DNA of 64,000 bases from Adineta ricciae. Lineage: Eukaryota; Rotifera; Eurotatoria; Adinetida; Adinetidae. A program made the position numbers and the translations under genes. The notes under the pieces were generated by a model. That model saw only the letters and a list, made by a program, of their open reading frames with translations, made no database searches and was not told the origin of the DNA. Numbering within the stretch: the first letter of the stretch is position 1; every line of letters begins with the position of its first letter. The stretch lies in assembly GCA_905250025.1 (NCBI GenBank), contig CAJNOJ010000141.1, positions 43,126 through 107,125 on the forward strand. The letters are read 5' to 3'. Of the stretch, positions 10,184 through 62,890 are shown in pieces.

Positions 10184-10446
10184 ATGGCACAAGCTACGCG
10201 CTCTGCGAAGAGCACAACTGCTAGTGCAGCTCCTAATGCTGTCATTCGAGAGATGACCTCTTCATTCGCTCGATCATTGGCAGATGCGAATTCCTCACTG
10301 ATTCGACAATCGCTTGATCGCTTACGAACTTATATTGGTGATTCAGTCGATAGTGATGAAAATATTTCAAAAGCATTCAAGTACTTGAAAGATAGAATTC
10401 ATCATGAGAGAGAAAGCGACGATGGTGAATCGCTTGCTTCCTTGAT
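10184..10446 (+). CDS. Giant midasin-like AAA+/VWA protein, start of gene (block A copy, cut at N)
   Basis: Opens MAQATRSAKSTTASAAPNAV and matches the first 88 codons at 13935 with a handful of substitutions (R for G at residue 6, N for S, AN.S for EN.P). It is cut by the single N at 10447, after which the sequence returns to the NHL gene. It is the second copy of the giant-gene start, not a separate short gene; a frame read across the N into NHL sequence is a false fusion. The upstream 800 bp matches the sequence before 13935, so both copies share a promoter region. Confidence 0.75.
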
Positions 10447-10447
10447 N
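10447..10447. other. Single-N contig junction A/B
   Basis: The left side is the giant-gene 5' end. The right side (10448) equals position 6376 in the NHL gene, a step back of about 4 kb in the locus. Confidence 0.85.
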
Positions 10448-13934: not shown

Positions 13935-16900
13935 ATGGCACAAGCTACGGGCTCTGCGAAGAGCACAACTGCTAGTGCAGCTCCTAGTGCTGTCATTCGA
14001 GAGATGACCTCTTCATTCGCTCGATCATTGGCAGACGAGAATCCCTCACTGATTCGACAATCGCTTGATCGCTTACGAACTTATATTGGTGATTCAGTCG
14101 ATAGTGATGAAAATATTTCAAAAGCATTCAAGTACTTGAAAGATAGAATTCATCATGAGAGAGAAAGCGACGATGGTGAATCGCTTGCTTCCTTGATTAC
14201 TGCCACATTGATCATTCCGTGTTATCGTTTCTATTCGACCAACGAGAAGTTTTCATTGCATTTTTTCCAATTATTCGAACTGATATTAACACATTCGTCG
14301 GTAGTGCGCAATGAAAACTTTCTCTTCTCAATTGCCGTATTTATTTCGCGTACAAATGTTTATCGACCAAACTTAGCTTTAACTCGACTTGATAAATGGA
14401 CCATCAAAATGTGGCTTGGAAAACCGGTGAGTCAAAATCCCGCAACAAACAAAGTACGCTTTGCATCTGGCAAACCATTTCCGTTCACTCCCGACTCACC
14501 CGTTTGTACTGTTTTATGCGATAATACCAAGTACCCACTTGATATCACCAATCAATTCGATGTATTCATCGCCAAAGCCAGTGAAAATCAAAACACTAAT
14601 GCGGACGAATTATTTACTCTTGAGAACATTCTCAATCAATTATTTCGCTGTCAATTCATTCTTCAAGCATTTTTAAATGCAGATCAATGCTTATCGTCGA
14701 TGTTATCGTTTGCCGTTCGCCGTCAACGAATCGTAGACATTCGGTTAACAAATGAAAGCAACGCTCAAGCTCTAACGGAATTAACGTCAATCAAAGATCG
14801 AATGCTGAACAAGTTCAATTATTTACCAGGTTCATGCGAGGGAGATTTTAAATTTATTCAAAGCGAATGTCGAGTTCAATGGACTGATGGTAAAACATTC
14901 ATCTATTCAACCAATACCATCCATCCGCGACCATCATTCTTGTCACCGATAGCGAAATTACTTCGCTATGCGCATCACCAACAGGAGAACATCGAAGATT
15001 CAGAAGCAAAAAAGCCTTGGAGTTTATTATTACAAACAATTCATCAAACAATTACGTCATATTTGGGAGATGCAACAACGAGTGATGCTATCAACGATTT
15101 CTTCGTCTATTTCCTGACTGACAACGATGAACAAATACGAAATATGGGTGGCAAACTTCTCACAACATTCGTCAACGAACTACTCATGTCAAGCGATGAA
15201 AATCTCCCTCCATTAATATCCTGTTCAATCCTAGAGAAGATTCTCCAATCAATGATAAATCATGAGCAATATACAATCAACGAAAGCCTGTTGAGCCAAT
15301 GTTTACAGCCATCCTTAGAATGGCCCATCAATGATTTATGCTCGTTACTAACCATGTTAGCTGTGAAATCAATGCAAACAGCAGACCATTGGATACAATA
15401 TTTCGTTAATTTAATGAATTTGAACCGAGAACAATGGGTGTCGTCATCAATAAAGACAAATCCAAGTTTTCTCGAGTTCTGTCGGCAAATTCCAGCGTCA
15501 TTATTCACACGATTGTTCGAACCGATGATGAGAGACTCATTTCATGTTCTCAAATTCATAATTATCAACTGTAAAAAAGACTGGACTAAGGTTTTACTGG
15601 AAATCATGGAGACACAAATGAAAGACAATCGCCTACAAGAAAATCTTCATGAATTGCTGAAAGATGCTCGTTTACACGCATTTAGTAACTGGAAAGTCTC
15701 GTCAACTTTCGATCTTTTACTTTCATTAATCAAACTAACCACAGACAAATACCCATTATTGCTCTTCGAACTTCTCCTTCTCTTGGAGAAAGTCTACGAT
15801 GAACACTTAAGTCCGAGAAACTTGAATATTCCTACAACAATTCAACCGATGGTTAATATTCTTCATTTAATATTTTCCAATGAGAGTTTTCTTTGCAACT
15901 CTACAACTCGTCGCGGTATTTTATTATCAACCACGTCGATTCTTCTTCATCTAATCGATCACATGAATCTGCAAGCATTCATCATGAATCCAGATGAAAT
16001 GAAACAACTCATTCAATCAACAATAGTGTGCTCGATCAATTACAAACAAACGTTACGTTTGTTCAATTATGTCCTTCGATCCAAACAACAAATTTTGATC
16101 AAAGATTGGTTCGAACAACTACTAACCTTAGCATTATCAACAAATGATAATCTCTCAGACGATGAACAACCATCAACGGTTCACTTCAACCCATCGACAA
16201 TAACCGAACTGATCGGTATGTACACTTATGAAATGATTGAACTATTACATGAGAAACTCGATCATACAAGAAATTTGATTTGCTTAACTACATTCAATTT
16301 TCTGTCGACTTTTATTCAACAATGTTTACCAACGTGTATTCAATGTTTGCTACATAGAAATGCTCGTATACGTATATCGATTGCACGATTGGTAGGTCGA
16401 GCGCTGAATATGCAATCGAGCGATCTTATCAAACTTCTGCAAAGTTTGCAAGATTCAACTGATGAACAAATTGACTTAACACCGGACACGTCATTAAACG
16501 TAATGAGTGATCAACAGCAAGCGGTTGCGCATATACATACGACGCCAGTGTATCTTCTCGAGCGTGAAAAGAAACGTTCGAAGTCTCAAATACCTTTCCG
16601 TACAATTAAACAGTCAGATTTTGGTTTATTATCAAAACATTTGAAAGCGTTAACACATGTCGAGGATGCATCAAACACTAACGCAGCAGATTTCGATGCG
16701 ATTAAAAGTTCGATTAGCGAATGTTCAGAAGAATTCCGTCACCTTATACCAAGCCGTCGTCAGTTACCGTCGTTAGTGCAAACCAGTACAATGCGAAATA
16801 ATCGGCAACGCATTGTCGAATGTATACGAACACCTATTCATTTGTTATTACAAGGCGAAACTGGGGTTGGAAAAAGTAGTTTGATACTCGACGTGGCTGC

Positions 16901-19900
16901 TGATCTTCGAAAACCATTAGTTCGTTTTAATCTTTCGTCGAAGACTGATATCGGCGCATTATTCGGGTCGGTCAAAATGAAAACAGTTAAGAGTGGGGAT
17001 GGCCAACATCAGGAAATTGAATTAGAATATGAAGAAGGTCCATTTACGACGGCATATCGTCACGGGCACTGGCTTCTATTGGATGAAATGAATCTAGCAC
17101 CACCGAATGTTCTTCAAGCAATTGAACAAGCGCTAGAATCCGGTGTTCTGACAATTCCGAATATTGAAGACGAGAATGATGTCAAAGATCAACCAAATCA
17201 AGTGAAACAGAACTGTCGTGTCTATCGAATACATTCAGATTTTCGTCTTTTCGCAACACAAAATCCATCCGCAGGCAAATATAAAGATGCGCGTGATACA
17301 CAATCAACCGCTCTGTTAAACCGCTTTAGTATTTTCATCGTCGAAGGTCCAAAGGAGAACGAGTTAGGTGATATTGTCACAAATAAATTAAAAACCGAGA
17401 ACTTTCCTTTTGTAACTCAAGCAGCACAAATGGTTGGATTGCATTTGAAAATCATGGCGACAATAAAAGAATCTAATTTCAAAGAACGAAATAGGAACTA
17501 CTCCGAAATAACTATTCGTGAACTTTTCCGTTGGTGTCAAAGTTTATGTGACTATGAAAAAATGTTAATGAAATCTTCCCAAACCATTAGCAAGCTTCCT
17601 TCAAGCACGTTCAATGCCATTCTAACTGAACAAGCATATGCCATTTATGGTTTACGATTTCGTGAAGCACAAAGTCGAGAAGAAATAGCGCAAATGATTG
17701 AGAACTTTTTTCATGTCAATCCAATACCATCATCAAAATTGTCGATTGAACATCGTCCAAACAATAACACGGTTGCATTTCTGTCCCAACAACGTTTACT
17801 ATTACAAATGCCAACGGTTTATCTCGAACGTATCGATCAAGACTGGCCATCAAATCTGAACCGATTGAGTAATTCAGAACTTACAAAAATGATCAAAATT
17901 CATAATTATGCGTTTCAATACTTTCATCATGAACATCTATTGCAAATTTATGATTGTTCTTACACATTATTCTGGTCAATGGTAGAACGGCGATCTCGCG
18001 AAAGTTCGACTCTAGTAGCCATCGTTGTTGAAACTTATACAAGTTTATGTCGAAATGAAAAGCAACGAAAAGAAATCGTCAAGTATATTTCAACAGAGTT
18101 CGGCGAACCGGAAAGCTCACTCGCAGAATACCAATCATCACTATCGTCGGCTCAATCATCATTTTACCTTGACGAAGAAGCCCATCGTATTGCACAATTT
18201 ATTCTAGCTGCATCGCCCTCACAACCCATTCTCATCGTTGGCCCCGAAGGTTGTGGCAAAAGTCATCTCGTACAATCAATCGCTACACTAACAAATGTTC
18301 GTTGTCAACACTTATACCTAACGCCCCAGACTGAGCCTGCAGCTCTTGTCGGCTCTCTTGTACCACATCCCAAACTACCAAGTTGGCACGATGGTGCCGT
18401 AAGCGAAGCTGTCAGTAAAGGGCATTGGCTGGTTCTTGAAAATTTTTCCGAAGCGTCGTCTGCTGTTCTCGAGCGCTTAAATCCTGTTTTAGAACAGCCA
18501 GCTCAGTGGGTTAAAGTCGAAAACAATGAAACACAACCTGTCGCGGTTCATCCGAATTTTCGCATCATCGCAACGATGTCGCCGCCAACTGGTCGCTTAC
18601 AAAATGCTTCAATTGAAACCAATCACGAACTTTCACCAGCTCTATACAATCGTTTTTTGATTATTTTTTATCAAGGCTTGAACTTATCGTCGCCGGACGT
18701 TTATAGAAACTTGTTCACAGCATACTTTCCAACTAATGAAATACAATTGATTGATACGCTTTGTGAGAAACTTCGTTCGGAGCAATTAACCCCGCGACAA
18801 TTGGTTCAGTTTATTGACTGTGCGTTCAAATTACAACATTCAAGAGTTGTCACCGAACGCAAAATCGATTTACCCTCGGTTTTACTCTCCGCTTACGAAC
18901 TTGTCTTCAGTAGTGATTCCAACAAACCATTAGCATCACCGGTTAAACTATACCTAGAAAAAGAAGCCCGACATGGTTCGATTAATTTCTTCAATTTATC
19001 TGTTTCTGAAAAAGCACGTAAAGAACATCGCGAACATATTATTGATCCTGACAAAACACCAACACGGTACGACGCTGCAAAACGCCTATGCGCATCGGTG
19101 ATTTGTTCACGTCCAGTCCTTCTCGAAGGTCCGGCTGCCACGGGAAAAACCAGTTTAGTCGAATACTTAGCACACTGTGACAAAAAAAAACTCTACCGAG
19201 TTAACAATACTAAAGGTACGACTATCCAAGACTATTTTGGTTCGTATATGCCGAATGGCGAATTTTTGAATGGCGCGCTATCTAGTGCAATGCTTCGTGG
19301 TGATTGGTTTGTTGCCGATGAGTTTGATTTAGCTGAGCCAGCTGTCATGAATGTTTTGTATCCGATTTTAGAAGGACAAAAATGTCTCACTGTACCAAAC
19401 ACTGGCCAGACTCTAATTGCGCGAGATGGATTTCGGTTCTTTGCAACACAAAACGGTACAAGTTATGTCGGACGAAAACAGTTACCAAAAACATTACGTT
19501 CAAGATTCTTAGAAATACAATTTCACTCTTTTACAGAAAACGAATTGCAATTCATTATTGTTCAACGTAAATCAACGTCCACTGTTTCGAAATCATCGAC
19601 AGCATTCGATGAAGATTTGAAAAAAGTCGCGCCGCAGATAGCATCAATGGTTAAAAATCTCAATCAACAAATCGACGAAAAGCAACTGCCGATCCTAGGC
19701 GCACCGAAACTCGGTCTAACAATGCGTGAAGTTATCAAATGGATTAATCGAAAACAACGAAAGGTCGATGTCGATTGGGATGAGCACGCACTAAGATTAT
19801 TAGAATCACGTGTACCGAGAAAACATAGTACTGCATTTATCACGTGTCTTCAAATTTCATTTCCACATTTGATAGATTCACCATCTCAGGTGAAAATCGA

Positions 19901-21391
19901 GGGAAATAAAATCTCGCTCAATCGACCATCTCGTCTACCAATATCGTACACTTTTACAGATTTCGATGCAGCTATTCATTTACAATTGGCATCAGCATCG
20001 CAAAATTTGTTACTGGCACTTTGGCGTGTGTTCGCTGCTGCTGAACAGCATGAACCAGTTCTTCTACTAGGGCCAACTTGTTATAAATCTGAACTAATCA
20101 AAATCTGGTCGAAATTGATGGCAAAGGAGTCCGAAGTTTGTGTTATAAACTGCTCAACATCAACTGAAACAAATGATCTGATCGGATCGATCAGGTATTC
20201 GTAGGAAGTTATTCCATATTTAGGAAATGAGCTTGTTTTTTATTTAGACCTTATACACATGCCGATGCATTGAGTTTATTATTGAACTGTTTAAATCAAC
20301 TGTATGAACGTGCGAAAAAGAATCTCGCAAGTGCTTCTCCAGCAGACATTGAAAGTTTTTCTCAATTTCGTACAAATTGTGATGAACTTGCAACTGACGT
20401 CGATAAATTTATCAGTGAAACCAAAAAACAGTCAGGAAAAAGAGCCGTTCGACAACGTCCGACAACAAAGCTTACCGAACAACCCCCTGGACCAGCCGTG
20501 GAATCTGAAGATACTGAAATTGATTGCGAACCAGATGAATTGAATAATTATACACCTCTACCAACATCTAGTTTACCCCCCAGGTCAATAGCAACAGCAG
20601 AACAATTGAGTAGCACAAAGAATCGTCCCTCTAGTGACGACGATGACGACGGTCAATATTTCGAAAAAGTTTATCGTACAAAAGAAGTCGTTGATATGAT
20701 GACTAATGATGAAGATGAAGATGATCCATTTGCAATGCCGTACAACACTGAAGATGAAGAAGAAGACGAAATTGATCCTTTCAGCACTGCTTCCGCAAAC
20801 GCTCCGAAGGAATCAGACGACAAAGAAGAAGCGATTGATCCTTTCAGCACTGCCCCTGCACACGTCCCTGTAAAATTAGACGCAGAAGAGGAAGAAGACG
20901 ACCCATTCAGCACACAACAATCATCACAACTATCAGCTGAATTAAACATTTTAGACTTTTTCAATGCAGTACAGTTCGATGATCAACCAACAATGCACTC
21001 TTCGACTTCTTCATCACGAACGAATGGTAATCCTATTGCTGAAGCGTATCAATCTATAAAAAACCGATTGGAGATAATAGCCTCCAGTCTCAACGGTATA
21101 TGCAGCATTGGATCAAACGAAAGTGGCATTTTGTTAATCAAAGTTCGTTGTGAAAGTATAATTAGCGAAGTTGAACGTGCAATTCAGCAAGGCAAATCGA
21201 ATATCTTCTTATTTCAAGATGGTCCTGTTACAAGTGCTGTCAAAGAGGGTAAAGTCTTAGTTTTAGAGGATATTAACGAACCATCCCAAGCTGTCATCGA
21301 ACGGCTGAATAGTTTATTCGAAACTGAACCGTCATTTATTCTCTATGAGGATTTTACTGCCCAAGGATCGAAAATAACTGCAATCGATCCG
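13935..21391 (+). CDS. Giant midasin-like AAA+/VWA protein, residues 1-2468 (block B, main copy of the 5' half)
   Basis: Exon 1 is 13935-20194 and exon 2 starts at 20248 (53-bp intron), continuing past the N into block F at 26713. The start ATG follows AAAC and matches the other copy at 10184. Residues 1-950 are helical, HEAT/ARM-like, with no named domain found. Then come AAA1 (P-loop GETGVGKS at residue 974, Walker B DE at 1050), AAA2 (GPEGCGKS at 1436), AAA3 (GPAATGKT at 1732, DE at 1795) and the first part of AAA4 with a damaged P-loop (GPTCYKS at 2046). The LLLDEMNLAP Walker B and ALLNRF motifs are of midasin type. AAA4 is interrupted by an acidic insert with four DPF motifs. Midasin remodels pre-60S ribosomes through a six-AAA+ ring; this chain shares the ring type but differs in length and extras, so a different or added role is likely. 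Substrate unknown. Confidence 0.85.
16780..17550 (+). other. AAA1 module
   Basis: Walker A GETGVGKSS, Walker B LLLDEMNLAPPNVLQAIEQA with intact Asp-Glu, sensor region LFATQNPS and arginine motif ALLNRF. All key residues are present, so this module should be able to bind and hydrolyse ATP. Confidence 0.85.
18190..18800 (+). other. AAA2 module, Walker B altered
   Basis: Walker A GPEGCGKSH is intact, but the Walker B end reads LVLENFSEA: Asp is Glu and the catalytic Glu is Asn. The arginine motif ALYNRF is present. The other copy (from 23428) has the same LVLEN, so it is not a sequence error. ATP binding is likely, hydrolysis doubtful. Confidence 0.8.
19070..19620 (+). other. AAA3 module
   Basis: Walker A GPAATGKTS, Walker B WFVADEFDLAEPAVMNVL, sensor RFFATQNG, arginine motif TLRSRF. 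Complete in both copies (also 24080-24640). Confidence 0.85.
20195..20247 (+). other. Intron 1 of the giant gene (53 bp)
   Basis: GTATTC donor and TTATTTAG acceptor, phase 2; splicing restores GSIR-RPYTHADALS inside AAA4. The same intron occurs at 25213-25265 and 25300-25352 in the other copy, with one base different. Confidence 0.8.
20690..20935 (+). other. Acidic insert with four DPF motifs
   Basis: Runs of Asp/Glu (DEDEDDPFAMP, EIDPFSTA, AIDPFSTA, EEDDPFSTQ). DPF/DPW are the classic peptides bound by the appendage of the AP-2 clathrin adaptor. In the other copy (25790-26040) the spacers differ a great deal but all four DPF remain. Binding to AP-2 is inference. Confidence 0.7.
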
Positions 21392-21392
21392 N
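21392..21392. other. Single-N contig junction B/C
   Basis: The right side (21393) equals about 14696, a step back of 6.7 kb within the same gene. Confidence 0.85.
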
Positions 21393-23426
21393 GTCGATGT
21401 TATCGTTTGCCGTTCGCCGTCAACGAATCGTAGACATTCGGTTAACAAATGAAAGCAACGCTCAAGCTCTAACGGAATTAACGTCAATCAAAGATCGAAT
21501 GCTGAACAAGTTCGATTATTTACCAGGTTCATGCGAGGGAGATTTTAAATTTATTCAAAGCGAATGTCGAGTTCAATGGACTGACGGTAAAACATTCATC
21601 TATTCAACCAATACTATCCATCCGCGACCATCATTCTTGTCACCGATAGCGAAATTACTTCGCTATGCGCATCACCAACAGGAGAACATCGAAGATTCAG
21701 AAGCCCAAAAGCCTTGGAGTTTATTATTACAAACAATTCATCAAACAATTACATCATATTTGGGAGATGCAACAACGAGCGATGCTATCAGCGATTTCTT
21801 CGTCTATTTCCTGACTGACAACGATGAACAAATACGAAATATGGGTGGCAAACTTCTCACAACATTCGTCCACGAACTACTCATATCAAGCGATGAAAAT
21901 CTCCCTCCGTTAATATCCTGTTCAATCCTAGAGAAGATTCTCCAATCAATGATAAATCATGAGCAATATACAATCAACGAAAGCCTGTTGAACCAATGTT
22001 TACAGCCGTCGTTAGAATGGTCCATCAATGATTTATGCTCGTTACTAACCGTGTTAGCTGTGAAATCAATGCAAACAGCAGACCATTGGATACAATATTT
22101 CATTAATTTAATGAATTTGAACCGAGAACAATGGATGTCGTCATCAATAAAGACAAATCCAAGTTTTCTCGAGTTCTGTCGGCAAATTCCAGCGTCATTA
22201 TTCACACGATTGTTCGAACCGATGATGCGAGACTCATTTCATGTTCTCAAATTCATCATTATCAACTGTAAAAAAGATTGGATTAAAGTCCTATTGGAAA
22301 TCATCGATACACAAATGAAAGACAATCGCCTACAAGAAAATCTTCATGAATTATTAAAAGATGCTCGATTACATGCATTTGGCGATTGGAAAGTCGCATC
22401 AACGTTCGATCTTTTACTTTCATTAATCAAACTAACCACAGACAAATACCCATTATTGCTCTCCGAATTTCTCCTTCTCTTGGAGAAAGTCTTCGACGGA
22501 CAACTAAGTCCGAGAAACTTCAACATTCCGTCAACAATTCAACCGATGGCTAATATTCTTAATTTAATATTTTCCAATGACAGCTTTCTTTGCAATTCCA
22601 CAATTCGTCGCAGTATTCTTCTATCAACCACATCGATTCTTCTTCATCTAATCGATCACATGAATTTGCAAGCATTTGTCATGAATACCGATGATATGAA
22701 ACAACTGATTCAATCGACAATATTCTGCTCGATCAATTATAAACAAACGTTACGTTTGTTCAATTATATCCTTCGATTAAAACAACAAATTTTGATCAAA
22801 GATTGGTTCGAACAACTACTAACCTTAGCATTATCAACAAATGATAATCTCTCAGACGATGAACGACCATCAACGGTTCACCTCAACCCATCGACAATAA
22901 CCGAACTCATCGGTATGTACACGTATGAAATGATTGAACTATTACATGAGAAACTCGATCATACAAGAAATTTGATTTGCTTAACCACATTCAATTTTCT
23001 GTCGACTTTTATTCAACAATGTTTACCTACGTGTATTCAATGTTTGCTACATAGAAATGCTCGTATACGTATATCGATTGCACGATTGGTAGGCCGAGCG
23101 CTGAATATGCAATCGGGAGATCTTATCAAACTTCTACAAAGTTTACAAGATTCAACTGATGAACGAATTGACTTAACAACGGACACGTCATTAAACGTAA
23201 TGAGCGATCAACAGCAAGCGGTTGCGCATATACATACGACGCCAGTGTATCTTCTCGAGCGTGAAAAGAAACGTTCGAAGTCTCAAATACCTTTCCGTAC
23301 AATTAAACAGTCAGATTTTGGTTTATTATCAAAACATTTGAAAGCGTTAACACATGTCGAGGATGCATCAAACACTAACGCAGCAGATTTCGATGCGATT
23401 AAAAGTTCGATTAGCGAATGTTCAGA
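21393..23426 (+). CDS. Giant gene, other copy, internal exon 1 fragment (block C, about residues 254-932)
   Basis: Collinear with 14696-16729 in block B, a few percent different, no stop in frame. It covers only the N-terminal helical region before AAA1. Substitutions are scattered and mild (S/N, V/I, D/E), with clusters around residues 550-640. The block begins and ends inside coding sequence at N junctions; starts predicted here are artefacts of truncation. Read as the second allele. Confidence 0.8.
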
Positions 23427-23427
23427 N
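23427..23427. other. Single-N contig junction C/D
   Basis: The left side ends at the equivalent of 16729 and the right side resumes at the equivalent of about 18410, so about 1.7 kb (all of AAA1) is missing from this copy. Codons read across it are not real. Confidence 0.85.
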
Positions 23428-25290
23428 TATCACTAAAGGGCATTGGCTGGTTCTTGAAAATTTTTCCGAAGCATCGTCTGCTGTTCTCGAGCGCTTAAAT
23501 CCTGTTCTAGAACAGCCAGCTCAGTGGGTTAAAGTCGAAAACAATGAAACACAACCCGTCGTGGTTCATCCGAATTTTCGCATCGTCGCAACGATGTCGC
23601 CGCCAACTGGTCGCTTACAAAATGCTTCAATTGAAACCAATCACGAACTTTCACCAGCTCTATACAATCGATTTTTGATTATTTTTTATCAAGGCTTGAA
23701 TTTATCGTCGCCGGACGTTTATAAAAACTTGTTCACAGCATACTTGCCAACCAATGAAATACAACTGATTGATACGCTTTGTGAGAAACTTCGCTCGGAG
23801 CAATTAACCCCGCGACAATTGGTTCAATTTATTGACTGTGCATTCAAATTACAACATTCACGAGTCGTCACAGAACACAAAATCGATTTACCCTCGGTTT
23901 TACTCTCCGCTTACGAACTTGTCTTCAGTAGTGATTCCAACAAACCATTAGCATCACCGGTTAAACTATACCTAGAAAAAGAAGCCCAACATGGTTCGAT
24001 AAATTTCTTCAATTTATCTGTTTCTGAAAAAGCACGTAAAGAACATCGCGAACATATCATTGATCCTGACAAAACACCAACACGATACGACGCTGCAAAA
24101 CGCCTATGCGCATCGGTGATTTGCTCACGTCCAGTCCTTCTCGAAGGTCCGGCTGCCACGGGTAAAACTAGTTTAGTCGAATACTTAGCACACTGTGACA
24201 ACAAAAAACTCTACAGAGTTAACAATACCAAAGGTACGACTATCCAAGACTATTTTGGTTCGTATATGCCGAATGGCGAATTTTTGAATGGCGCGCTATC
24301 TAGTGCAATGCTTCGTGGTGATTGGTTTGTTGCCGATGAGTTCGATTTAGCTGAGCCAGCTGTCATGAATGTTTTGTATCCGATTTTAGAGGGACAAAAA
24401 TGTCTCACCGTACCAAACACTGGCCAGACTCTAGTTGCGCGGGATGGATTTCGATTTTTTGCAACACAAAACGGTACAAGTTATGTCGGACGAAAACAGC
24501 TACCAAAAACATTACGTTCAAGATTCTTAGAAATACAATTTCACTCTTTTACAGAAAACGAATTGCAATTCATTATTGTCCAACGTAAATCAACGTCCAC
24601 CGCTCCGAAATCATCGACAGTATTCGATGAAGATCTGGAAAAAGTCGCACCACAGATAGCATCAATGGTTAAAAGTCTCAATCAACAAATCGACGAAAAG
24701 CAACTACCGATCCTAGGCGCACCGAAACTCGGTCTAACAATGCGTGAAGTTATCAAATGGATTAATCGAAAACAACGAAAGATCGATGTCGATTGGGATG
24801 AGCACGCACTAAGATTATTAGAATCACGTGTACCAAAAAAACATAGTACTGCATTCATCACGTGTCTTCAAACTTCATTTCCACATCTGATAGATTCACC
24901 ATCTCAGGTGAAAATCGAAGGAAATAAAATCTCGCTGAATCGACCATCTCGTCTACCAATATCGTACACTTTTACAGATTTCGATGCAGCTATTCATTTA
25001 CAATTGGCATCAGCATCGCAAAATTTGCTCCTGGCACTTTGGCGTGTGTTCGCTGCTGCTGAACAGCACGAACCAGTTCTTCTACTAGGGCCAACTTGTT
25101 ATAAATCTGAACTAATCAAAATCTGGTCGAAATTGATGGCAAAGGAGTCCGAAGTTTGTGTTATAAACTGCTCAACATCAACTGAAACAAATGATCTGAT
25201 CGGATCGATCAGGTATTCGTAGGAAGTTATTCCATATTTAGGCAATGAGCTTGTTTTTTATTTAGACCTTATACACATGCCGATGCATTG
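23428..25290 (+). CDS. Giant gene, other copy, AAA2 end to AAA4 start (block D)
   Basis: Collinear with about 18410-20272: exon 1 to 25212, intron 25213-25265, then 25 bp of exon 2. Carries the second half of AAA2 (LVLENFSEA), all of AAA3 (GPAATGKTS, VADEFDLAEP) and the damaged AAA4 P-loop GPTCYKSE. Agreement of these unusual residues between copies supports them as real. Its 3' end repeats in block E. Confidence 0.8.
25213..25265 (+). other. Intron 1 of the giant gene, other copy (block D)
   Basis: Same 53-bp intron as 20195-20247, one base different (GGCAATG for GGAAATG). Confidence 0.75.
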
Positions 25291-25291
25291 N
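25291..25291. other. Single-N contig junction D/E
   Basis: About 80 bp before the N (25210-25290) are repeated just after it (25297-25377). The two contig ends overlap and share the GGCAATG intron variant, so D and E are one haplotype. Confidence 0.85.
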
Positions 25292-26490: not shown

Positions 26491-26491
26491 N
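26491..26491. other. Single-N contig junction E/F
   Basis: 26492-26712 is identical base for base to 21171-21391 (end of block B) but differs from block E at two positions, so F continues B, not E. Confidence 0.85.
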
Positions 26492-30442: not shown

Positions 30443-30443
30443 N
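30443..30443. other. Single-N contig junction F/G
   Basis: The right side (30444) equals 28013, a step back of 2.4 kb. Confidence 0.85.
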
Positions 30444-43171: not shown

Positions 43172-43172
43172 N
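43172..43172. other. Single-N contig junction G/H
   Basis: The right side (43173) equals 32741, a step back of 10.4 kb, the largest overlap in the window. Confidence 0.85.
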
Positions 43173-52100: not shown

Positions 52101-55100
52101 TGTCGACATGATACAAGATTCAAAATGTGTCTATGAAATCTACTTCAGTAAAGATCTCAAATATCGAATCATCTGTTTAGGAAAAATACGAAAGATCTGC
52201 TACGACATTATGTATAAATCGATACATTTATCAGAGAAACAATATCGCAGTGAACTACCGGCATGTCTGCCTGATACAATTCATTACGAAGAATTGACAG
52301 TACACAACACAGGAGAAGTCAAAATGACAATAGAATCGAAGGCGGAAAACAAATCCACAGACGCAGTGACGATCAGTTTATCACATAATCAAGTTGTTTT
52401 AGAGCCAAATGCATTGGTGGTGTTAAAAATCGAACTGAAAGCGAGTAAATCACATGAAAGTCTTGAAAATGTTATTAATTTGAACTTTCCTGACGCAAAT
52501 CAACGATCAGCATTTAAATTCATTCTGAAAACCTCAGCTGGCTGGCCTGAATTAGATCAAGATCTTCTCAAGCCCTTGAAAACGTTGAAGGTCGAAGAAA
52601 ATGCAAATGAAGAGACCGGTCAAATTGTTTTGTTCAACAAAGGTTTAGTTGAAATGCTAATTGATGAGTTTCGTTCCACTTCACCACATGTATCCATCGA
52701 GAATTCAAATACCTATCTACATTCGATATTACCTCGTCAGAGAATTGAATATAAATTCATTTACAAAGTTCAGAAGAAATTTCCTTCATTCGATTGCGAA
52801 TTTGTTCTTCACACCAATTGTAAAGAACCCATGCAACGTATTCCATTTAAGTGCAAACGTTTAGCACCAATCATCACTATCGATCAGAATGTTTTGCATT
52901 GTGGCACAACATATCCTTCTAACAAGCATATCTTCGAAATAGCAATGAAGAACGATGGACACGCACGTGGACAACTAGAATGCGAACCATATGAGAACGA
53001 TGACGTCATTTCCTTCAGAATCACCAATGATACTAAAAGTGTTCCGATAGCTGCATTGGATTCACGAAAGATCAAATGTATTGTCGAGATTAAAAAGTCT
53101 GCGCCATTGGGAGATTTCAAGATTGACCTACCATTAACAATTCGATCAGGAACAGGTTTATCAAAGAAATACAAGTTGGTAGTAACTGGACGAACTAAAC
53201 CAAAAGACGAATCGAAAGGACCGAGTTCACTTATTGATCTCCCATCATCATCGCAGCAGATAGCACAGTCAACGACTGGAAAACGATTGATGAATTTACT
53301 TGAAGATGAAACCTATGCATATCGGCGACGTGCAGCAACTGCTATTGCTCCAATCATTACTCAACTCGATGAATTAATACATCATGAACCTAAACCTTCG
53401 GATATTCCCGATAATTTGACATGTGATGAAATTCTCTCTGAACTCGAATCCGATGAACGTGAAATATCTTCGTACACAGAAAAAGTTCAAGAGAGTGTCA
53501 AGAAAACCTTCGATCTGTTTTCTGGAAAGCACTGGAGTAGTCTATACAAAAGCATCGACGGTATTTTGAACGAACAATTGGCGCCGGCGATCATCGGTTC
53601 ACCCTATAAGAGCGAATCAGAGAATCTTCTATTACCTCTTGAATGTGCAAAGAAATTATCTGTTCTCTTCGAAGAACAATCACGAACAAGCGACAAGCAG
53701 ATCCTAGGACGTCTATTGGAATATGAACATCATTCTTTCGAGAGAAATGCCGATGATTTGACAGCTAGAAAACGTTTACTCGATTACACAACGGAATTGA
53801 TTTCAAATCAAAATACACAACTGACAGGCAAAGAGAAACAACAGATGAAAATGTTTACAGATAAAGTTGCGAATGTCGTGCAGTGTATCGAGGAAAAAGG
53901 CCATCCGGAACAAGCATTCAGTAACTTGATATCCGAAATGAAAACAGAAACTAATGGAAACTCTGTGAGTTTTCTCGATCAAATCTTACAATTAGCAGTG
54001 AATGAAACACCATTAGATGAGAAGACGGTTTTACAAAAACTATACGAATCCGATGTACCACTAGTCGACACGGAATTAGTTACACAAGCCATTTCCGCTT
54101 CGGAAAATGAACTTTCAGCTAGATCAGCACTCGACTTCCTGCAAACACATTTGGATGATTCAGAGGAGGCAATGAATGCAATTGAATTAATGAAGCTAAG
54201 TGAAAAATTATCACATGAAGATTATCAACCATCCGTGAGAGATATCGCAACACTACCCTATGTCATGGCTTCATTGTCATCAGATTTAGAAGCGAATGAA
54301 AAAGAAAATATTCGTGGTTTCCAACGTCTAATCTCAAACTTAACTAATGGTATTAAAAAATTAGCCGATTCGAGTTGTGACTGGTCGAAGTTCATCGAAG
54401 ATCTATGTGCGACATTGAGTCTACATATTGATAAAACAATCGTCAATTCATTGAGAACTGTTTTGACTATAGTCCTATTAGTAGATCGAACATCTATCTG
54501 CAGCAAGGAAACGTATATTGCTATCGTTTCAGCAATGTTAAATTTTGGCAATGATCGTTGCCGAAGTTTATCATCCGATTTGGAAAAACTAACTGTACAA
54601 AGAGATCCATTTGATCTCTTTGAAACAATCTTATCAGTTACTTACAATTGCCGTCGATTGAAAGCAACACAAGTTACATGGATCAAAGTGATTCGTGATA
54701 CAATGACAACATTTCGATCGCCATCTCATTCACCAAAATCGCTCGTCAGTCTCGTTAGAACATTGGAAGATTCGTTGCTAGAACAATTAGGAGTATCTGA
54801 GCATAAGAAATTGCATGATACTCTCGCAGCGATCATATCCGATATGGAAAAAAGCCACACTCTTGGAGTAATGCAAAGTGTTTCTGATCTATGTGACTTG
54901 ATGCATCCGGAAAATACCGAACAAAAAGCAAACAGTGTATTCATACAAATCATCTCGAATATCGATACAGTGGCCATGACGCAAATGGAAGTGTTAGAAC
55001 TAGGTATTCAGTTAACGAGCCGGTTAAATGATGGTGGCAACGGACGCAAGACTCTCGATCATTTGAATACATTACTCGAGTCTTATCAAAATTTAATGCC

Positions 55101-55472
55101 CGTGATGAACGGTGAATTAACTCGATCCAACGTGTCACAGTTAGTTGAACAAACGATTCAGTGCATTCCTGATGAAACTACCAAAGAACTTTTGAGACCA
55201 ATTTCAACTGTCTTGCATAGATTGAGTACCAGTGAACGTGTCACTATGGAGACTGTTGTTAATCTTCTAGATATCATTCCAGATCAACATTTATCCGAAC
55301 ATGTCAAATGTATTTTCTCAACGGCACCGGAAATACTCAATGGTGACATCAAGCAGTCGGTGATGGAATTAGCACAACAACTAATTAGTAGCGAACTGGC
55401 AGATGTTAGTGAAATAAGTCTGAAAACAATCATGGATCAAGGCGTTTCTGCACCAACGAAAGCATTAAAATC
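43173..55472 (+). CDS. Giant gene, residues about 3554-7655 (block H: linker, beta-sandwiches, start of helical solenoid)
   Basis: 12.3 kb of exon 3 with no stop. 43173-53597 is the second copy of 32741-43171, and 53598-55472 extends beyond block G. Most of the overlap differs by a few percent, with in-frame single-codon insertions (EIDDPT for EIDPT; GTIIKA for GTVKA). Three stretches differ much more (49555-49700, 49970-50690, 52660-53190). The new part is a helical, HEAT-like array beginning after the SPYKSESENLLLP segment. The ATG at 43435 is an internal methionine in this copy (Leu in block G), so it is not a start. H and F overlap by 131 bp with one mismatch and may be the same haplotype. 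Confidence 0.82.
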
Positions 55473-55473
55473 N
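55473..55473. other. Single-N contig junction H/I
   Basis: The right side (55474) equals 53763, a step back of 1.7 kb. Confidence 0.85.
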
Positions 55474-58400
55474 AGCTAGAAAACGTTTACTCGATTACAC
55501 AACGGAATTGATTTCAAATCAAAATACACAACTGACAGGCAAAGAGAAACAACAGATGAAAATGTTTACAGATAAAGTTGCGAATGTCGTGCAGCGTATC
55601 GAGGAAAAAGGCCGTCCGGAACAAGCACTCAGTAACCTGATATCCGAAATGAAAACAGAAACTAATGGAAACTCTGTGAGTTTTCTTGATCAAATCTTAC
55701 AATTAGCAGCGAATGAAACACCATTAGATGAGAAGACGGTTTTACAAAAACTATACGAATCCGATGTACCATTAGTCGACACGGAATTAGTTACACAAGC
55801 CATTTCCGCTTCGGAAAATGAACTTTCAGCTAGTTCAGCACTGGACTTCCTGCAAACACATTTGGATGATTCAGAGGAGACAATGAATGCAATTGAATTA
55901 ATGAAGCTAAGTGAAAAATTGTCACATGAAGATTATCAACCATCCGTGAGAGATATCGCAACACTACCCTATGTCATGGCTTTATTGTCATCAGATTTAG
56001 AAGCGAATGAAAAAGAAAATATTCGTGGTTTCCAACGTCTGATCTCAAACTTAACTAATGGTATTAAAAAATTAGCCGATTCGAGCTGTGACTGGTCGAA
56101 GTTCATCGAAGATCTATGTGCGACATTGAGTCTACACATTGATAAAACAGTTGTCAATTCATTAAGAACTGTTTTGACTATTGTCCTATTAGTAGATCGG
56201 ACATCTATCTGCATCAATGAAACGTATATTACTATCGTTTCAGCAATGTTAAATTTTGGTAATGATCGTTGCCGAAGTTTATCATCCGATTTGGAAAAAC
56301 TAACTGTACAAAGAGATCCATTTGATCTGTTTGAAACAATCTTATCAGTTACTTACAATTGCCGTCGGTTGAAAGCAACACAGGTTACATGGATCAAAGT
56401 GATTCGTGATACAATGACAACATTTCGATCGCCATCTCATTCACCAAAATCGCTCGGCAGTCTCGTTACAATATTGGAAGATTCATTGCTAGAACAATTA
56501 GGAGTATCTGAGCATAAGAAATTGCATGATACTCTCGCAGCGATCATATCCGATATGGAAAAAAGCCACATCCTTGGAGTAATGCAAAGTGTTTCTGATC
56601 TATGTGACTTGATGCATCCGGAAAATACCGAACAAAAAGCAAACAGTGTATTCATACAAATCATTTCGAATATCGATACAGTGGCCATGACGCAAATGGA
56701 AGTGTTAGAACTAGGTATTCAGTTAACGACCCGGTTAAATGATGGTGGCAACGGACGGAAGACTCTCGATCATTTGAATACATTACTCGAGTCTTATCAA
56801 AATTTAATGCCCGTGATGAACGGTGAATTAACTCGATCCAATGTGTCAGAATTAGTTGAACAAACGATTCAGTGTATTCCTGACGAAACTATCAAGGAAC
56901 TGTTGAGACCAATTTCAACTGTCTTGCACAGATTGAGTACCAGTGAACATATCACTATGGGAACTGTTGTTAATCTTCTAGATATCATTCCAGATCAACA
57001 TTTATCCGAACATGTCAAATGTATTTTCTCAACGGCACCGGAAATACTCAATGGTGACATCAAGCAGTCGGTGATGGAATTAGCACAACAACTAATTAGT
57101 AGCGAACTGGCAGATGTTAGTGAAATAAGTCTGAAAACAATCATGGATCAAGGCGTTTCTGCACCAACGAAAGCATTAAAATCAATCTCTGCTCGGCTTC
57201 CTGACGGTCTTCGACTTGGATTCAATTTCGGCATCGAACAATTGTCTTCGACAAAACTCTCGCAAGAACAAATTGTTAAGGAAGTGTCTAAGCTATACAA
57301 TCAAGACACAGCAAATGCTTTACAAACTTCATTTAATGTGTTGACTGCTTTGAAAACCGACAAATTGCAAGCATTGAGAAGTCTTGTAGAATTGGTACCA
57401 GACGAACGTGCAAAAGCAATCTTCGATGCTCTCGAGCATATCAGCAAACGTGAGTCATGTGATATGCAAGATGTGATTAAGACAACATTAGAACTGGCAT
57501 CGATAATGGCACCGAAGAAAATGTCGGAAACATTCGAAACGATCGGCAATGTTTATGTGAAAATAGTCAGTCATCAAGAAATTGATGCAATTAAAGATGC
57601 ACTTCGACTTCTGCCATTTGTTCCGGAACAAGCTCATCATGTTATAGATTCGTTAACTAATCTATCGAAACAAGAGATAACAGCAGAAAATGTACTCAGT
57701 TGTGCATTTGATACAACACTTAACATCGTTGATCCGAAAACTGCAAAAGCATTACGCACTGTACGAATTGTGATCGATCAAGTACAAAACCATGATGTAC
57801 AAGGGGCAGTGCATTCGATTGCTAGTGAATTCTTTCCTGAATATGCTACGAGGATCAATACTGCGATGGAAATCACAAGTTCAATTACTGATACATTGTC
57901 GCGAACAAATGATCCTTTGCAAGCATTGGACAGTCTGATGAATAATGAGAAATTAAAGTCATATCTACCATCGGAAATTCAAAACGTTTATGATATAGCA
58001 CAAGAACTACGAAGTATTATTGATAGCAAAGATATAGCGAAAGAAGAACTAACTAAACGTGCATTGCAACTAGGCGCTTCATTTTTACCACCGGAACACG
58101 CCAAGAAAGTCAACGACGTCGTTAAATTGATCGATGCAGTTCGTTCTGATGACCCACAGAAAATACTAGATCAATCATTGAACGTTGCTGCAAGTTATCT
58201 TCCACCCGAAATCAACAATCATATTCAACCAGTGATACCAATAATACGTAAAAAGCTCAACAATCAAAAGATCAGCTATGAAGACGTAATGGATGTAGCC
58301 GGTTCATACATTGGTGGACGAGGACAACAAATAATTAACGCTGCTAAACCTTTCGTATCAGCATTAATAAATGGAAAGCGCTTGTCAGGTGATCAATATC

Positions 58401-61400
58401 TTGATCTTCTTGACACTGCCATGACTACTTTGGGTGTGAAAAAAGAAGTAATGGACATAGTACACAAAGCTAAAACCGTATACAAAAATGTTCGCCAAAT
58501 ACAACAAGCCACATCGGCGCTGATGAAAGCAACCACAATAGCATCGAAAGCAGCGCAGATTAGTTCAATAGCAGCAGCTGCCCTGTCATTGCTGACTGAA
58601 CTTATACCCGACTTGCCAGAAGATGTTAAAACAGCTATTGATATAATCGCCGGAATTGCGTTACTCTTAACCGCCACAAATCCTGTTGGACTCGTACTAG
58701 CAGCCATCGGTCTAGTGTTCTCCCTCTCCAAACTATTTGGTGGAGGCAAAGGTGGTGGTGGTGGCGGAGGTTCCGGTGGAAAATCTGGTGGAGCAGGTTC
58801 AGGCGGCGCAGGTCAAGGCGGTAATAGTGGAGGCGCATCTGGTGGTGGTACCGGTGGAAAATCTGGTGGAGCAGGCTCAGGCAGTAGTAGTGGAGGAGCA
58901 ACTAGTGGTGGTACCAGTGGAAAATCTGGTGGCGCAGGTTCAGGCGGCGCAGGTCAAGGCGGTAATAGTGGAGGCGCATCTGGTGGTGGTACCGGTGGAA
59001 AATCTGGTGGAGCAGGCTCAGGCGGTAGTAGTGGAGGAGCATCTGGTAGTGGTACAGCCGCAGGCGCAAGCTCAGGAAAAAGTAGTGCTGGTGCAAGTGG
59101 CGGAAGCTCTTCTCATGCTACTACGGGCGCAGGTAAAGATGGTGCTAGTAGTGCCAGTTCTAGCGGCGGCGGAAGTACAAACTCGGGCAAAGGTGGTGCC
59201 GGTACAAGTGGCAGTGTAGGTTCAAGTTCTACTGGTGCTACTGGTACAAGTACGGGCAAAGTTAAAACGAGTGAAGGTTCTATTCATCCGACAAAGGCAT
59301 ATACAAGTAAGGGCGACAGCGGTAGTAGCTACGGTGAAGATGCACATTATCCTGGAGCTGAAGATACAGGTGATCCTACTATTCCGGCGAGTCCACTGTT
59401 AATGGATGAAATCGGTTTAGGAGCAAGAGAAGCCGCAAAAAACAAAGTAGAAACACTCGCATCAGAAGCAGCTACATTAAACGAAGAATCAGAAGCACAA
59501 GTATCAAACATAATAAAACAGGATGAATTGTTATTACCAGAAACAATCACATGTTTGACAACAGCAGCTAAAATCAACAACAAAATTCAAGCAACTATGC
59601 ATGCTGTTCAGCAAATGGCAGCCAACAATATGAGAAAAGAAATAGACAATCTAGCCAAAACAACTTTACCTAAAGTTATTCAAACATCACTACAATTATA
59701 TCAATCGTTGGAATTCATTGATTCATGTTCAGGTGATGTCAATGGTCACATAAGACGAACTTGCCAAGAAATACAAAGAGATTTAATCCAAGTGTTGGAT
59801 AAATTAAGCGAATCAGAATCCTTACGTAAATTATGCAAACTAAGCAAGAAGAACGATTTGGCGGCTGACTACGATATACCCGAAGACAGCCACGTTTCGG
59901 AGTTGAACTATCAGGGACAAGGCCAGCAACAACAAACAAATTTGGACAATATCAAACAACTCTTAAAAGGATTCGAAGATTCAAAATTTGAGCAAGGCCA
60001 AATAATGGGTGACCCGTTATTACATCAACTGGGTATTCGGCTCGATAATCTTCTAGCAAATTATGACAATGACCTAGCCACTGGTCTCGACGAAACGAGC
60101 AAAGATGGAGACAAAAAAAAAGATCCTTCTACACCGATTGCTGAACCTCCAACAACCGCGAATCGTGATATAGTTCTAGAGATAAACGACGACGGAATGA
60201 CGACCAAAGCTGGATCAGAAAATGTAACCACAGTCAAAGATGGTAATAAATTTTCTGGAGTGATCCGCGTTGATTTTGGTCCAAGTTTAGATGGAGGCCC
60301 ATCACCAGATAAAAAACGGACGAAACACGACAGTTCAAAAGTCAGCATTAGCAAGGAACAATTAGAGACTTTCCAGAAGCGATCTGCGGACATGTGCTCT
60401 GCTCTTTTACTATCAGCCAACAAATATGATATTGGAACCATCACTGAACAGTGTGATCCCGAACATTTACCAGAAACGGCATTAGATAAACCCCGTTATG
60501 CTCTACTTGCTCGCATTACACGAAATATACAGTTAATGTTATTCACGCGTTTGCGTTCGGCATTACAAAAACAATACGGCAAACAACAAACAACACCCAA
60601 CGATGATTTACAATTCGAATTCATTTTCTGTGTGGATAACAGTGGAAGTATGAGTGGAAAAAAGATTCGCGAAGCATTAAATACATTAGTTATTCTAATT
60701 GAAACATTTCATCGTCTCGAATGGAAATTCGGCGTTGTTCGATTCGGTGCGGAACAAAAGATACTTAAACCCTTGGGACATGAATCCATGTATAGCACAG
60801 TATCAACGACAAGCTCTACTCAAAGCGTCCAGCAAGCAGCCATCGCACGGGGACAATATATTCTTGAATCGTTCACAACCGACGAAAAGACCTTACCAGC
60901 AACAGCCTTGAAACAAATTGCTACGAACAAAGATCTATACGGTACTCAAATTAAACCAAACGTCAAGCGATATATCGTTATGATCACTGATGGTATTTCA
61001 TCTCAAGATGAAACTGATATGTACACGAATCAATTACGCCAGGCCAATGCCGATCTCTATGTGGTTTGTATTATCCCCGAAAAGCCGAAGGACGACGATG
61101 CAAAATTTTCCAACGAATACAAACAATTTGCCATTGAACATGAGAGAAAGGCAAATGATTTTATTCGACGTATAGCACCTGAACGAAATCGACTTATTGA
61201 AACGGGACAATTAGATAACTTAACAAAGGAAGTTGTCAATGATCTTTTTCATATGATCGAACAATCGATTGTTCTCTACACAAGTCGACCCGTTGATCCT
61301 TCCAAAATCTCTATGGCACTGAGTACAAATGACGGACTGAAATTTCATCCAATGATCCCATTTGTCCTCTCCGACGTAAAAGACATCACATTATGGGGAC

Positions 61401-62890
61401 ATGGAGCAATTCCATACATCGGTCAATTCTATGTCAATGATGCGCAAGAAAAACTCAAACAGCAAACGTTTCAACAACAGATAAATATGAATTTCACGTC
61501 GGACTCAGATGAATATATCAAGCATTTCGACGAAACACTCGATGCACTGGAAAAAAGTTATTCAAATCTAGAACTGCATGATGCAGTTCTCGCACAAACT
61601 GATCGAATTTTGCAACAAACCGAACAACAGTTTGACGAATATATCAGTGAGTTAGTTCGTGCGATGGAAGATTACGTTCTTCCAGCGTATAAACCAACAC
61701 AATCGTTGCCCGACACACGAGGAAGTCGATTATACATCCCGGGTATAGTGAAATTCATTTGTACGCAAGGACAATACAATCGAATCTATTTGAATCAAAT
61801 CGGCTCGCAAAAACCCGAGTACCGCATTGCCTTACTTCTCGATCAATCGGTTTCAATGACTGGGCCAACGTACTTCGCATCAGTTGATATTTTACTTTCA
61901 ATGTGTGCAGCATTAAATCGAATCGGTATTGAAGATTTCAATGTTTTGACATTCGGAAGACGAGTCGAATTAATTAAAAGTTACAAACAAAAATACGATC
62001 GTTCATTCATACATCATCTCACCAATTCATTGAAAATCGATGGTGAAACAACGCTATTATGCGATGCAATATTTGCCGCGACTGAATTGCTACAACAACA
62101 AGCCTCATACAATAACAATCACGGTCCAATGTTCATTTTTGCACTTACCGATGGCTATGATAAACGAGGAAGTTTCATACAGACCGTCATTGCGTATGCT
62201 GAACAACGCTCGGTCACAGTGATTGGAATCGGCGTTGGCCTCGAGGCCACCGGTGTTTCGCTAGCATTTAACGACTGGATCATCGCACAAAATCCACGTT
62301 TACTCTCTGATGCACTAATCAATTGGTCGAATGAACAAAGTAATGGAGAAAAACCGTACGAATCACCTTATATAGATAAGACAACAGACTTTCAAGGAGA
62401 AGACGGAAAAAAATATTCCACCACAGATGACGTTTGGAACGAAGAAATGAAGACACATTTTGATGCGATAACACAAAGTACAAAACGTACGATTGACTTA
62501 ACATTTTCTAACAATACTCATAGTTCACCGTTAACAGTGGAGATTTGTTTCGTTATGGATTGTACTGGTTCGATGGGACGTTGGATTGCGGCATGTAAAC
62601 AACATATCAAAGCTATTGCTGATGGCATACAGAAGGAAATGAAAGAAAAGTATGACAAAGATAGTGTTCTACGCATGGCATTTGTTGCCTATCGTGATTA
62701 TGGAGATTCGAATCGTTTTGATGTAATTGATTTCCATCAGACACCGAACCTTGCACCAGTTGAAGCAAAAATTGCGAGTCAACAAGCCAGTGGTGGTGCA
62801 GATGAATGTGAAGATGTTCAAGGTGGTTTTGACAAAGCATTGAAATTAAGTTGGACAAAAGACAAAAGTTCACGAGCGGCACAGATATTG
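55474..62890 (+). CDS. Giant gene, residues about 7085-9557 (block I: solenoid, hydrophobic stretch, Gly/Ser tract, three VWA domains)
   Basis: 7.4 kb of open exon 3. 55474-57183 repeats the end of block H; the rest is new. In order: helical solenoid (to about 58490), an Ala/Ile/Leu-rich hydrophobic part (58550-58735), a Gly/Ser-rich tract (58738-59270), a mixed helical part with a Gln-rich patch (GQGQQQQT), VWA1 (MIDAS DNSGS, residue 8806), VWA2 (DQSVS, 9208) and VWA3 (DCTGS, 9447). VWA1 and VWA2 also show the later MIDAS TDG. A C-terminal MIDAS VWA is the substrate-binding end of midasin, where it grips UBL domains; three in a row is unusual. The frame is cut in VWA3 by the N at 62891, so the C-terminus is unseen. 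Confidence 0.85.
57370..58490 (+). other. Alpha-solenoid with a repeat of about 38-40 residues
   Basis: Successive helical pairs share a pattern with a short hydrophobic-Pro-Glu turn: LVELVPDERAKAI, LRLLPFVPEQAHHVI, IASEFFPEYATRI, LKSYLPSEIQNVY, LGASFLPPEHAKKV, VAASYLPPEINNHI, VAGSYIGGRGQQII. Spacing between the later turns is about 38-40 residues. I do not recognise a named family; HEAT/ARM-like is the nearest description. Confidence 0.6.
58550..58735 (+). other. Hydrophobic segment, possible membrane hairpin
   Basis: Contains ISSIAAAALSLLTELI and, after a charged PDLPEDVK turn, IIAGIALLLTATNPVGLVLA running on through AIGLVFSLSKLF. The second stretch is over 30 uncharged residues with a central Asn-Pro, long enough for a re-entrant or hairpin insertion. 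A buried soluble helix bundle is the alternative. Confidence 0.4.
58738..59270 (+). repeat. Gly/Ser-rich tract with 141-bp tandem duplication
   Basis: Starts with a glycine run, then a 47-codon unit (58778-58918) directly repeated (58919-59059) with few changes; each unit holds two GGKSGGAGSG half-units. The remainder is Gly/Ser/Ala/Thr without order. Codon use is strongly GGT/GGC. Likely a flexible tether between solenoid and VWA modules. Confidence 0.75.
60614..61290 (+). other. VWA domain 1 with MIDAS
   Basis: FIFCVDNSGSMSGKKIREAL gives DxSxS, and YIVMITDGISS gives the later Asp. Complete metal-site pattern. Confidence 0.8.
61800..62340 (+). other. VWA domain 2 with MIDAS
   Basis: IALLLDQSVSMTGPTYFASV gives DxSxS; GETTLLCDAI supplies the Thr and FIFALTDGYDKRG the Asp. 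Confidence 0.78.
62525..62890 (+). other. VWA domain 3 (alpha-kinase/VwkA-like type), truncated by N
   Basis: ICFVMDCTGSMGRWIAACKQ gives the DxTxS variant; GGADECEDVQGGFDKALKL follows. From memory this pattern is typical of VWA domains seen next to alpha-kinase domains (VwkA). The remainder lies beyond the N, so whether a kinase follows cannot be seen. Confidence 0.6.

What the first reader, a model, noticed from the sequence alone, without database searches (positions are those of the whole stretch)
13935..62890. A giant single-chain six-AAA+ / triple-VWA protein (at least about 9,557 residues, unfinished)
Joining the non-redundant parts of blocks B, F, G, H and I gives an open frame of 28,671 nt (a multiple of three) across two well-supported introns. 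The order of AAA+ ring, long linker and C-terminal MIDAS VWA is that of midasin (MDN1/Rea1; the human protein is about 5,600 residues), but here the N-terminus is about 950 residues, AAA4 carries an acidic DPF insert, the arm has Ig-like and solenoid parts, and there are three VWA domains. I know of no named family with this order. A new machine of the midasin/MoxR-VWA type is a fair reading; the substrate is unknown.
Basis: partly seen in the sequence, partly recalled or inferred. Interest (0 to 1): 0.88.

Follow-up and report, generated by a model that had tools for sequence, protein, structure and literature searches.

The report
Giant midasin-like ring motor, new family
The genome of what is likely a bdelloid rotifer carries a gene for a 9,651-residue protein with six ATPase modules in one chain and three VWA domains at its end; it belongs to a family shared with algae and separate from the ribosome-assembly ATPase midasin, which this animal also has, and it is predicted to pull protein complexes apart.

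Summary
Collapsing them gives one frame from an ATG at 13935 to a stop 2,858 bases past the window end: 9,651 residues, two introns. A paralogue on contig C75 reads cleanly as 9,281 residues. Six such giant genes were seen, plus a separate intron-rich MDN1, so this is not the animal's midasin. Relatives occur in other bdelloids, green algae, a brown alga, a thraustochytrid and a haptophyte. Distinctive: catalytic Walker B only in AAA1, 3 and 5 (midasin: AAA2-5); a degenerate AAA4 with an acidic insert; a lost AAA5 arginine finger; an ASH/PapD-like Ig domain in a long arm; no midasin D/E-rich region; a midasin-type MIDAS domain between two further VWAs. DPF arrays in the insert are patchy (8 of 42 proteins). 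Best reading: a midasin-like, ATP-driven remodelling machine with three alternating working sites, substrate unknown. No paper describing the family was found; one mentions a 7,479-residue bdelloid protein partly similar to midasin.

The parts
13935..20194 (+). exon 1: start codon, N-terminal region of about 970 residues, AAA1-AAA3 and start of AAA4
   Evidence: Rotaria socialis relative starts with the same MAQA
20195..20247 (+). intron 1 (53 nt, GT..AG), same place in C48 and C75B
20248..28852 (+). exon 2 (AAA4-AAA5, start of AAA6), interrupted by alternative-haplotype pieces 21393-26490 and a repeated 26492-26712
28853..29231 (+). intron 2 (379 nt)
   Evidence: C48 has an intron at the matching place, C75B does not
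29232..62890 (+). exon 3 (rest of AAA6, arm, three VWAs), with repeated haplotype stretches 30444-32870, 43173-53597, 55474-57183; it ends at extended coordinate 66857 outside the window
16854..17099 (+). AAA1, Walker A GETGVGKS to Walker B LLLDE
18240..18455 (+). AAA2, Walker A GPEGCGKS to Walker B LVLEN (no catalytic Glu)
19128..19334 (+). AAA3, Walker A GPAATGKT to Walker B FVADE
20070..21283 (+). AAA4, degenerate Walker A GPTCYKS, acidic insert, Walker B LVLED (span includes intron 1)
20723..20902 (+). four DPF motifs in the acidic AAA4 insert
27499..27735 (+). AAA5, Walker A GPPGVGKT to Walker B ILLDE; arginine finger replaced (LPRSTQAHF)
28561..29491 (+). AAA6, Walker A GGDCSGKT to Walker B ILFDN (no catalytic Glu), spans intron 2
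41046..41984 (+). Ig-like (ASH/PapD-fold) region of the arm; first 121 residues modelled well
60623..61096 (+). VWA1, MIDAS DNSGS
61829..62155 (+). VWA2, midasin-type MIDAS domain, DQSVS
62543..62854 (+). VWA3, VWA_4 type, DCTGS; continues outside the window
21393..26490 (+). three alternative-haplotype pieces, copies of 14696-16729, 18412-20272 and 20187-21391
43173..53597 (+). second haplotype copy of 32741-43171 (94% identical, 10.4 kb)

Best explanation
This is a single-chain six-AAA+ ring protein of a eukaryotic family related to but separate from midasin, and it is predicted to work like midasin: ATP hydrolysis in the ring would move the long arm and VWA tail so that a substrate gripped by the VWAs is pulled out of a larger assembly. 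Shown: the gene and its 9,651-residue frame, the family, the separate MDN1, the motif pattern and the domain identities. Inferred: hydrolysis at three alternating sites (AAA1, AAA3, AAA5), with AAA2 and AAA6 binding ATP without hydrolysing it and AAA4 empty; gripping through the three MIDAS motifs; force from arm remodelling as published for Rea1. Guessed: in the members that carry DPF arrays, these and the ASH-type domain bring the machine to endocytic coats or the ciliary base.
For: Family profile scores 1,149-3,336 bits for relatives against 780 for the best recognisable midasin. All twelve module groups are single clades; AAA3 of the two families are sisters, 99/88. Walker B DE in AAA1 (9 of 9 located), AAA3 (10 of 10), AAA5 (10 of 10) and not in AAA2 (0 of 10), AAA4 (0 of 9), AAA6 (0 of 9) of ten family proteins. 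VWA2 is homologous to midasin's MIDAS domain (midasins up to 62 bits; 51 of 69 proteins hit). MIDAS DxSxS/DxTxS in all three VWAs of W, C48 and C75B. dN/dS 0.12-0.21 between haplotype copies. Rea1 mechanism: PMC11603028, passages.
Against: No biochemistry. The DPF array is patchy: 8 of 42 proteins, absent from the second bdelloid clade and most algal members, so it may be convergent and says little about the family's function. The arm is mostly unassigned. Tail and Ig models are weak overall (mean pLDDT 51 and 54), and the Ig model's top hit is a pilus chaperone. ASH and Cep192 Pfam matches are below their cut-offs. Cross-family module links other than AAA3 are weak, and the ring tree carries a long-branch warning.
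Confidence: 0.62

Rival explanations
1. It is a diverged duplicate of midasin that still works in ribosome assembly.
For: Same order of ring, arm and MIDAS; midasin is the best solved relative; VWA2 is midasin-type; PF17867, the Midasin lid, matches both.
Against: Separate MDN1 on C135; modules in separate clades; different catalytic sites; no D/E-rich region: at most 0.19 D+E per 300 residues in the last 40% of five family proteins against 0.35-0.50 in three midasins.
Confidence: 0.15
2. It is a trafficking or ciliary scaffold in which the ring is mainly structural and hydrolysis matters little.
For: Half of the ring positions lack a catalytic Glu; ASH/PapD-like domain and DPF arrays in some members; arm of about 5,300 residues.
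Against: DE pairs in AAA1, 3 and 5 are kept in every family protein where the module was located.
Confidence: 0.15
3. The giant frame is an assembly artefact that fuses separate genes.
For: The window is mis-assembled at nine joins.
Against: C75B reads 9,281 residues with one intron and no N inside the gene; C48 reads 9,476 residues to the contig end; Apatococcus has a 7,295-residue predicted protein with AAA, Cep192-type and VWA domains.
Confidence: 0.03

Closest known systems
Midasin (MDN1/Rea1)
   Same: Six AAA+ modules in one chain, long arm, midasin-type MIDAS VWA near the C-terminus; best solved relative
   Different: Active sites AAA1/3/5 instead of AAA2-5; degenerate AAA4; two more VWAs; no D/E-rich region; Ig-like arm; separate module clades; about 9,300-9,650 residues here against about 5,500
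Cytoplasmic dynein heavy chain
   Same: Six AAA+ modules in one chain
   Different: Weak sequence match (30 bits against 231 for midasin); VWA tail present here; dynein lacks a VWA partner according to PMC7159879 (passage)
MoxR-VWA ternary conflict systems of bacteria (PMC7159879, passages)
   Same: AAA+ of the MoxR/midasin clade working with VWA; PF20030 (bpMoxR) matches above cut-off in AAA2
   Different: Separate small proteins in operons there; one giant eukaryotic chain here
7,479-residue Rotaria magnacalcarata protein (PMC7943196, passages)
   Same: Giant bdelloid protein, about 25% identical to midasins over about 1,000 residues; probably a member of this family by size and description (sequence not compared)
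   Different: Mentioned because a retrotransposon interrupts it; no domains or family described in the passages I saw

Membership tests
Midasin (MDN1) | six AAA+ modules in one chain | tested here: met
Midasin (MDN1) | modules group with midasin modules | tested here: not met
   twelve separate clades, AAA3 pair sisters
Midasin (MDN1) | catalytic AAA2-AAA5 | tested here: not met
   AAA1/3/5 in ten family proteins; AAA2-5 in three midasins
Midasin (MDN1) | midasin-specific Pfam models MDN1_4th and AAA_lid_5 | tested here: not met
   match only C135 in this genome; the other lid model PF17867 matches both
Midasin (MDN1) | D/E-rich region before the MIDAS domain | tested here: not met
Midasin (MDN1) | MIDAS VWA domain | tested here: met
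   VWA2 homologous, but followed by VWA3 rather than terminal
Midasin (MDN1) | binding of UBL domains and action on pre-60S particles | not testable with these tools
   needs experiment
Dynein heavy chain | microtubule-binding stalk between AAA4 and AAA5 | not tested
   only a weak match to dynein seen
RNF213 | RING E3 module | tested here: inconclusive
   no RING model among the families listed for the window ORFs and C75B pieces, but two lists were cut at 25 and the first 252 residues of C75B were not in a piece

The most novel reading that the evidence does not exclude
A third ancient kind of single-chain six-AAA+ ring motor in eukaryotes, beside midasin and dynein: a machine with strictly alternating live and dead sites and a triple-VWA hand, which in some lineages is docked to endocytic coats by DPF arrays and strips coat or transport complexes. 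It was kept in bdelloid rotifers and algae, lost or unrecognised elsewhere, and hidden in databases under the name midasin.
Probability: 0.17. Interest if true: 0.9.

Novelty: new variant of a known kind. Interest (0 to 1): 0.7.

Why it matters
Single-chain six-AAA+ rings are rare. A family present in green algae, stramenopiles, a haptophyte and bdelloid rotifers would add a branch beside midasin and offers natural rings in which only the odd-numbered sites look live, a direct test of how ring motors coordinate hydrolysis. It also shows that database entries named Midasin mix two families, which misleads annotation and orthology work.

Tried and rejected
Rejected: ordinary midasin (membership tests); fusion by assembly (intact paralogues); the DPF array as a family-wide feature. 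I first thought it widespread, where my pattern located the insert in only 9 of 42 proteins; the recount over all 42 found a cluster of three or more in 8 (W, C48, C75B, P0002, P0003, P0010, Apatococcus, Hondaea), and in 0 of 69 midasin-side proteins. Three of the 42 (P0001, P0007, P0012) show no AAA5 and may end before the array. A hydrophobic hairpin in the arm of the window protein (from residue 8131) is not seen in C75B or C48.

Led nowhere: the viral-contig search (alignment not conserved enough); the prokaryote scan with the tail gave one weak VWA match in a KSB1 bacterium; the protein search with the algal arm and tail gave only Apatococcus besides the query. A whole-genome count of copies did not complete (tool busy), so 'at least six' rests. 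Protein searches take candidates of 0.55-1.75 times the query length, so relatives of about 9,000 residues in other animals could have been missed.

No description of the family was found in searches; most subscription papers and preprints are not held, so this does not show that none exists.

Full report
What the window is. The window is C141:43126-107125 of a 130.5 Mb, 1,033-contig genome. The closest named relatives of the first exon are bdelloid rotifer proteins (Rotaria socialis 74%, Adineta vaga 57%); an unnamed protein is 83% identical. The source is very likely a bdelloid.

The repeated blocks are haplotypes. A self-comparison finds head-to-tail repeats of 0.2 to 10.4 kb. The window contains nine N's, and directly after each the sequence repeats an earlier stretch at 94-100% identity. 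Three pieces (21393-26490) lie wholly inside the preceding piece. Differences fall mostly on third codon positions, and dN/dS is 0.12-0.21 in the five pairs tested. This fits two alleles laid in tandem by the assembler, both under purifying selection; read depth was not available.

The complete gene. Collapsing the repeats and adding sequence beyond the window gives one frame from ATG 13935 to a stop at extended coordinate 66858 (C141:109,983): 9,651 residues with introns of 53 and 379 nt. The same genome has a cleaner paralogue, C75B (9,281 residues, one intron, same last residues), and C48 (9,476 residues up to the contig end). More distant giant frames lie on C75 (a second one, 7,493 codons), C112 (7,430) and C12 (7,717). 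Six loci were seen; a full count did not complete.

Not the ordinary midasin. The Pfam models MDN1_4th and AAA_lid_5 match only contig C135; the other midasin lid model, PF17867, matches both kinds. A 387-residue exon on C135 scores 707 bits to yeast midasin chains; the 2,089-residue first exon of the window gene scores 306 to the same chains and 352 to its best one. The animal has a separate canonical MDN1.

A family across eukaryotes. With a ten-sequence profile, 234 of 7,979 scored candidates reached E<=1e-10 and 120 were listed. Relatives from bdelloids, Tetradesmus, Cymbomonas, Bryopsis, Ectocarpus, Hondaea, a Prymnesium MAG and unnamed sources score 1,149-3,336 bits; the best recognisable midasin scores 780. 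Five proteins at 782-880 bits were not assigned, and some short fragments that one search had also found score below 780 among the midasins, so the gap is clear only for long proteins. A further search found Apatococcus lobatus, 7,295 residues. P0047, an unnamed protein 56% identical to the Tetradesmus one, shares the tail with C75B: 27% over 495 columns, E 4e-45. Databases call several members Midasin, and one dynein heavy chain.

Module phylogeny. In a tree of 77 AAA modules (seven family members, six midasins) each of the twelve positional groups is one clade with at least 98% bootstrap, and AAA3 of the two families are sisters (99/88). Other cross-family links are weak. The simplest reading is that the six-module ring predates the split. 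A whole-ring tree of 37 proteins puts the bdelloid proteins in two separate clades, with a long-branch warning. Vertical loss and horizontal transfer were not told apart.

Alternating catalytic sites. In ten family proteins the Walker B Asp-Glu pair is present in AAA1 (9 of 9 located), AAA3 (10 of 10) and AAA5 (10 of 10). The Glu is replaced by Asn or Gly in AAA2 (10 of 10) and by Asn in AAA6 (9 of 9 located), and AAA4 has Glu-Asp instead (9 of 9 located), with no Gly-Lys in its Walker A (9 of 9 located) (some by eye). The AAA5 arginine finger, which would complete the AAA4 site, is missing in 15 of 15 located of 18 proteins; midasins keep RNRF in 9 of 9 located of 10. Three midasins show DE in AAA2-5, as published (PMC11603028, passages). 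That the ring uses three sites is inference.

Insert, arm and tail. The AAA4 insert is 14-20% D+E in the nine proteins where it was located. DPF arrays of three or four lie in it in W, C48, C75B, Rotaria socialis, Adineta vaga, P0003, Apatococcus and Hondaea: 8 of 42 family proteins and 0 of 69 midasin-side proteins. The second bdelloid clade and the other algal members lack them. In five of the eight tested, shuffling 145 residues around the array reached the count in 0 of 20,000. The arm holds an Ig-like region: the first 121 of 313 residues are modelled mostly with good confidence, and Foldseek matches pilus chaperones, HYDIN, ciliary central-apparatus proteins and OCRL1 at E 3e-5 to 1e-4, all PapD/ASH/MSP-like folds. 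The ASH and Cep192 Pfam matches are below cut-off. The tail has three VWAs with MIDAS motifs DNSGS, DQSVS and DCTGS in the window protein. VWA2 is homologous to midasin's MIDAS domain (best 65 bits in an unassigned protein, up to 62 in midasins; 51 of 69 proteins hit); VWA1 only marginally (11 bits), VWA3 not. Foldseek on the weak tail model (mean pLDDT 51) returns VWA structures, tandem mussel VWAs first and human MDN1-MIDAS at rank 7.

How it likely works. Rea1 pulls assembly factors off pre-ribosomes through ATP-driven remodelling of its arm onto a substrate-bound MIDAS domain (PMC11603028, passages). The same parts are here, so a puller or remodeller is the best-supported mechanism; the substrate is unknown. 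DPF arrays of Eps15 bind endocytic adaptors (abstract starts of PMC4731787 and PMC4921775 in the listing) and ASH domains occur in centrosomal and trafficking proteins (listing). That is the only basis for the coat or cilium guess, which is untested and, given, applies to part of the family at most.

What is in print. One paper mentions a 7,479-residue Rotaria magnacalcarata protein with partial similarity to midasin, interrupted by a retrotransposon (PMC7943196, passages). Searches found no description of the family.

Noticed in passing
window 10151-10446: The first contig piece ends with the start of the other allele of the same gene (frame with MAQAT at about 10184), cut off at the N at 10447.
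   Followed up: partly
window 5713-6684: Frame with NHL repeats (PF01436), another gene upstream of the giant gene; a partial copy follows the N at 10447.
   Followed up: no
window 6907-7787 and 11048-11241: Long array of imperfect 15-30 bp repeats (CAACATCAACATCAA type), open in several frames.
   Followed up: no
window 58762-59097: Gly-Ser-rich repeats of 63-141 bp within the arm, encoding GGGTGGKS-like strings next to a hydrophobic hairpin seen only in the window protein among W, C48 and C75B.
   Followed up: partly
G000:C10:851700-853170: The strongest AAA_5 matches of the genome lie in another gene on contig C10, one with a stop inside (perhaps an intron); its identity was not checked.
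   Followed up: no
tree: Odd-numbered modules of both families (AAA1, 3, 5) fall on one side of the tree with moderate support (94/84), and midasin's AAA2, 4 and 6 group together (91/72), as if the ring grew by triplication of a pair.
   Followed up: no
G000:C106:120206-120478: A further match to the Midasin lid model PF17867 outside the loci studied.
   Followed up: no
L028: A KSB1 bacterium encodes a VWA resembling VWA3 (32% identity over query residues 730-854).
   Followed up: no
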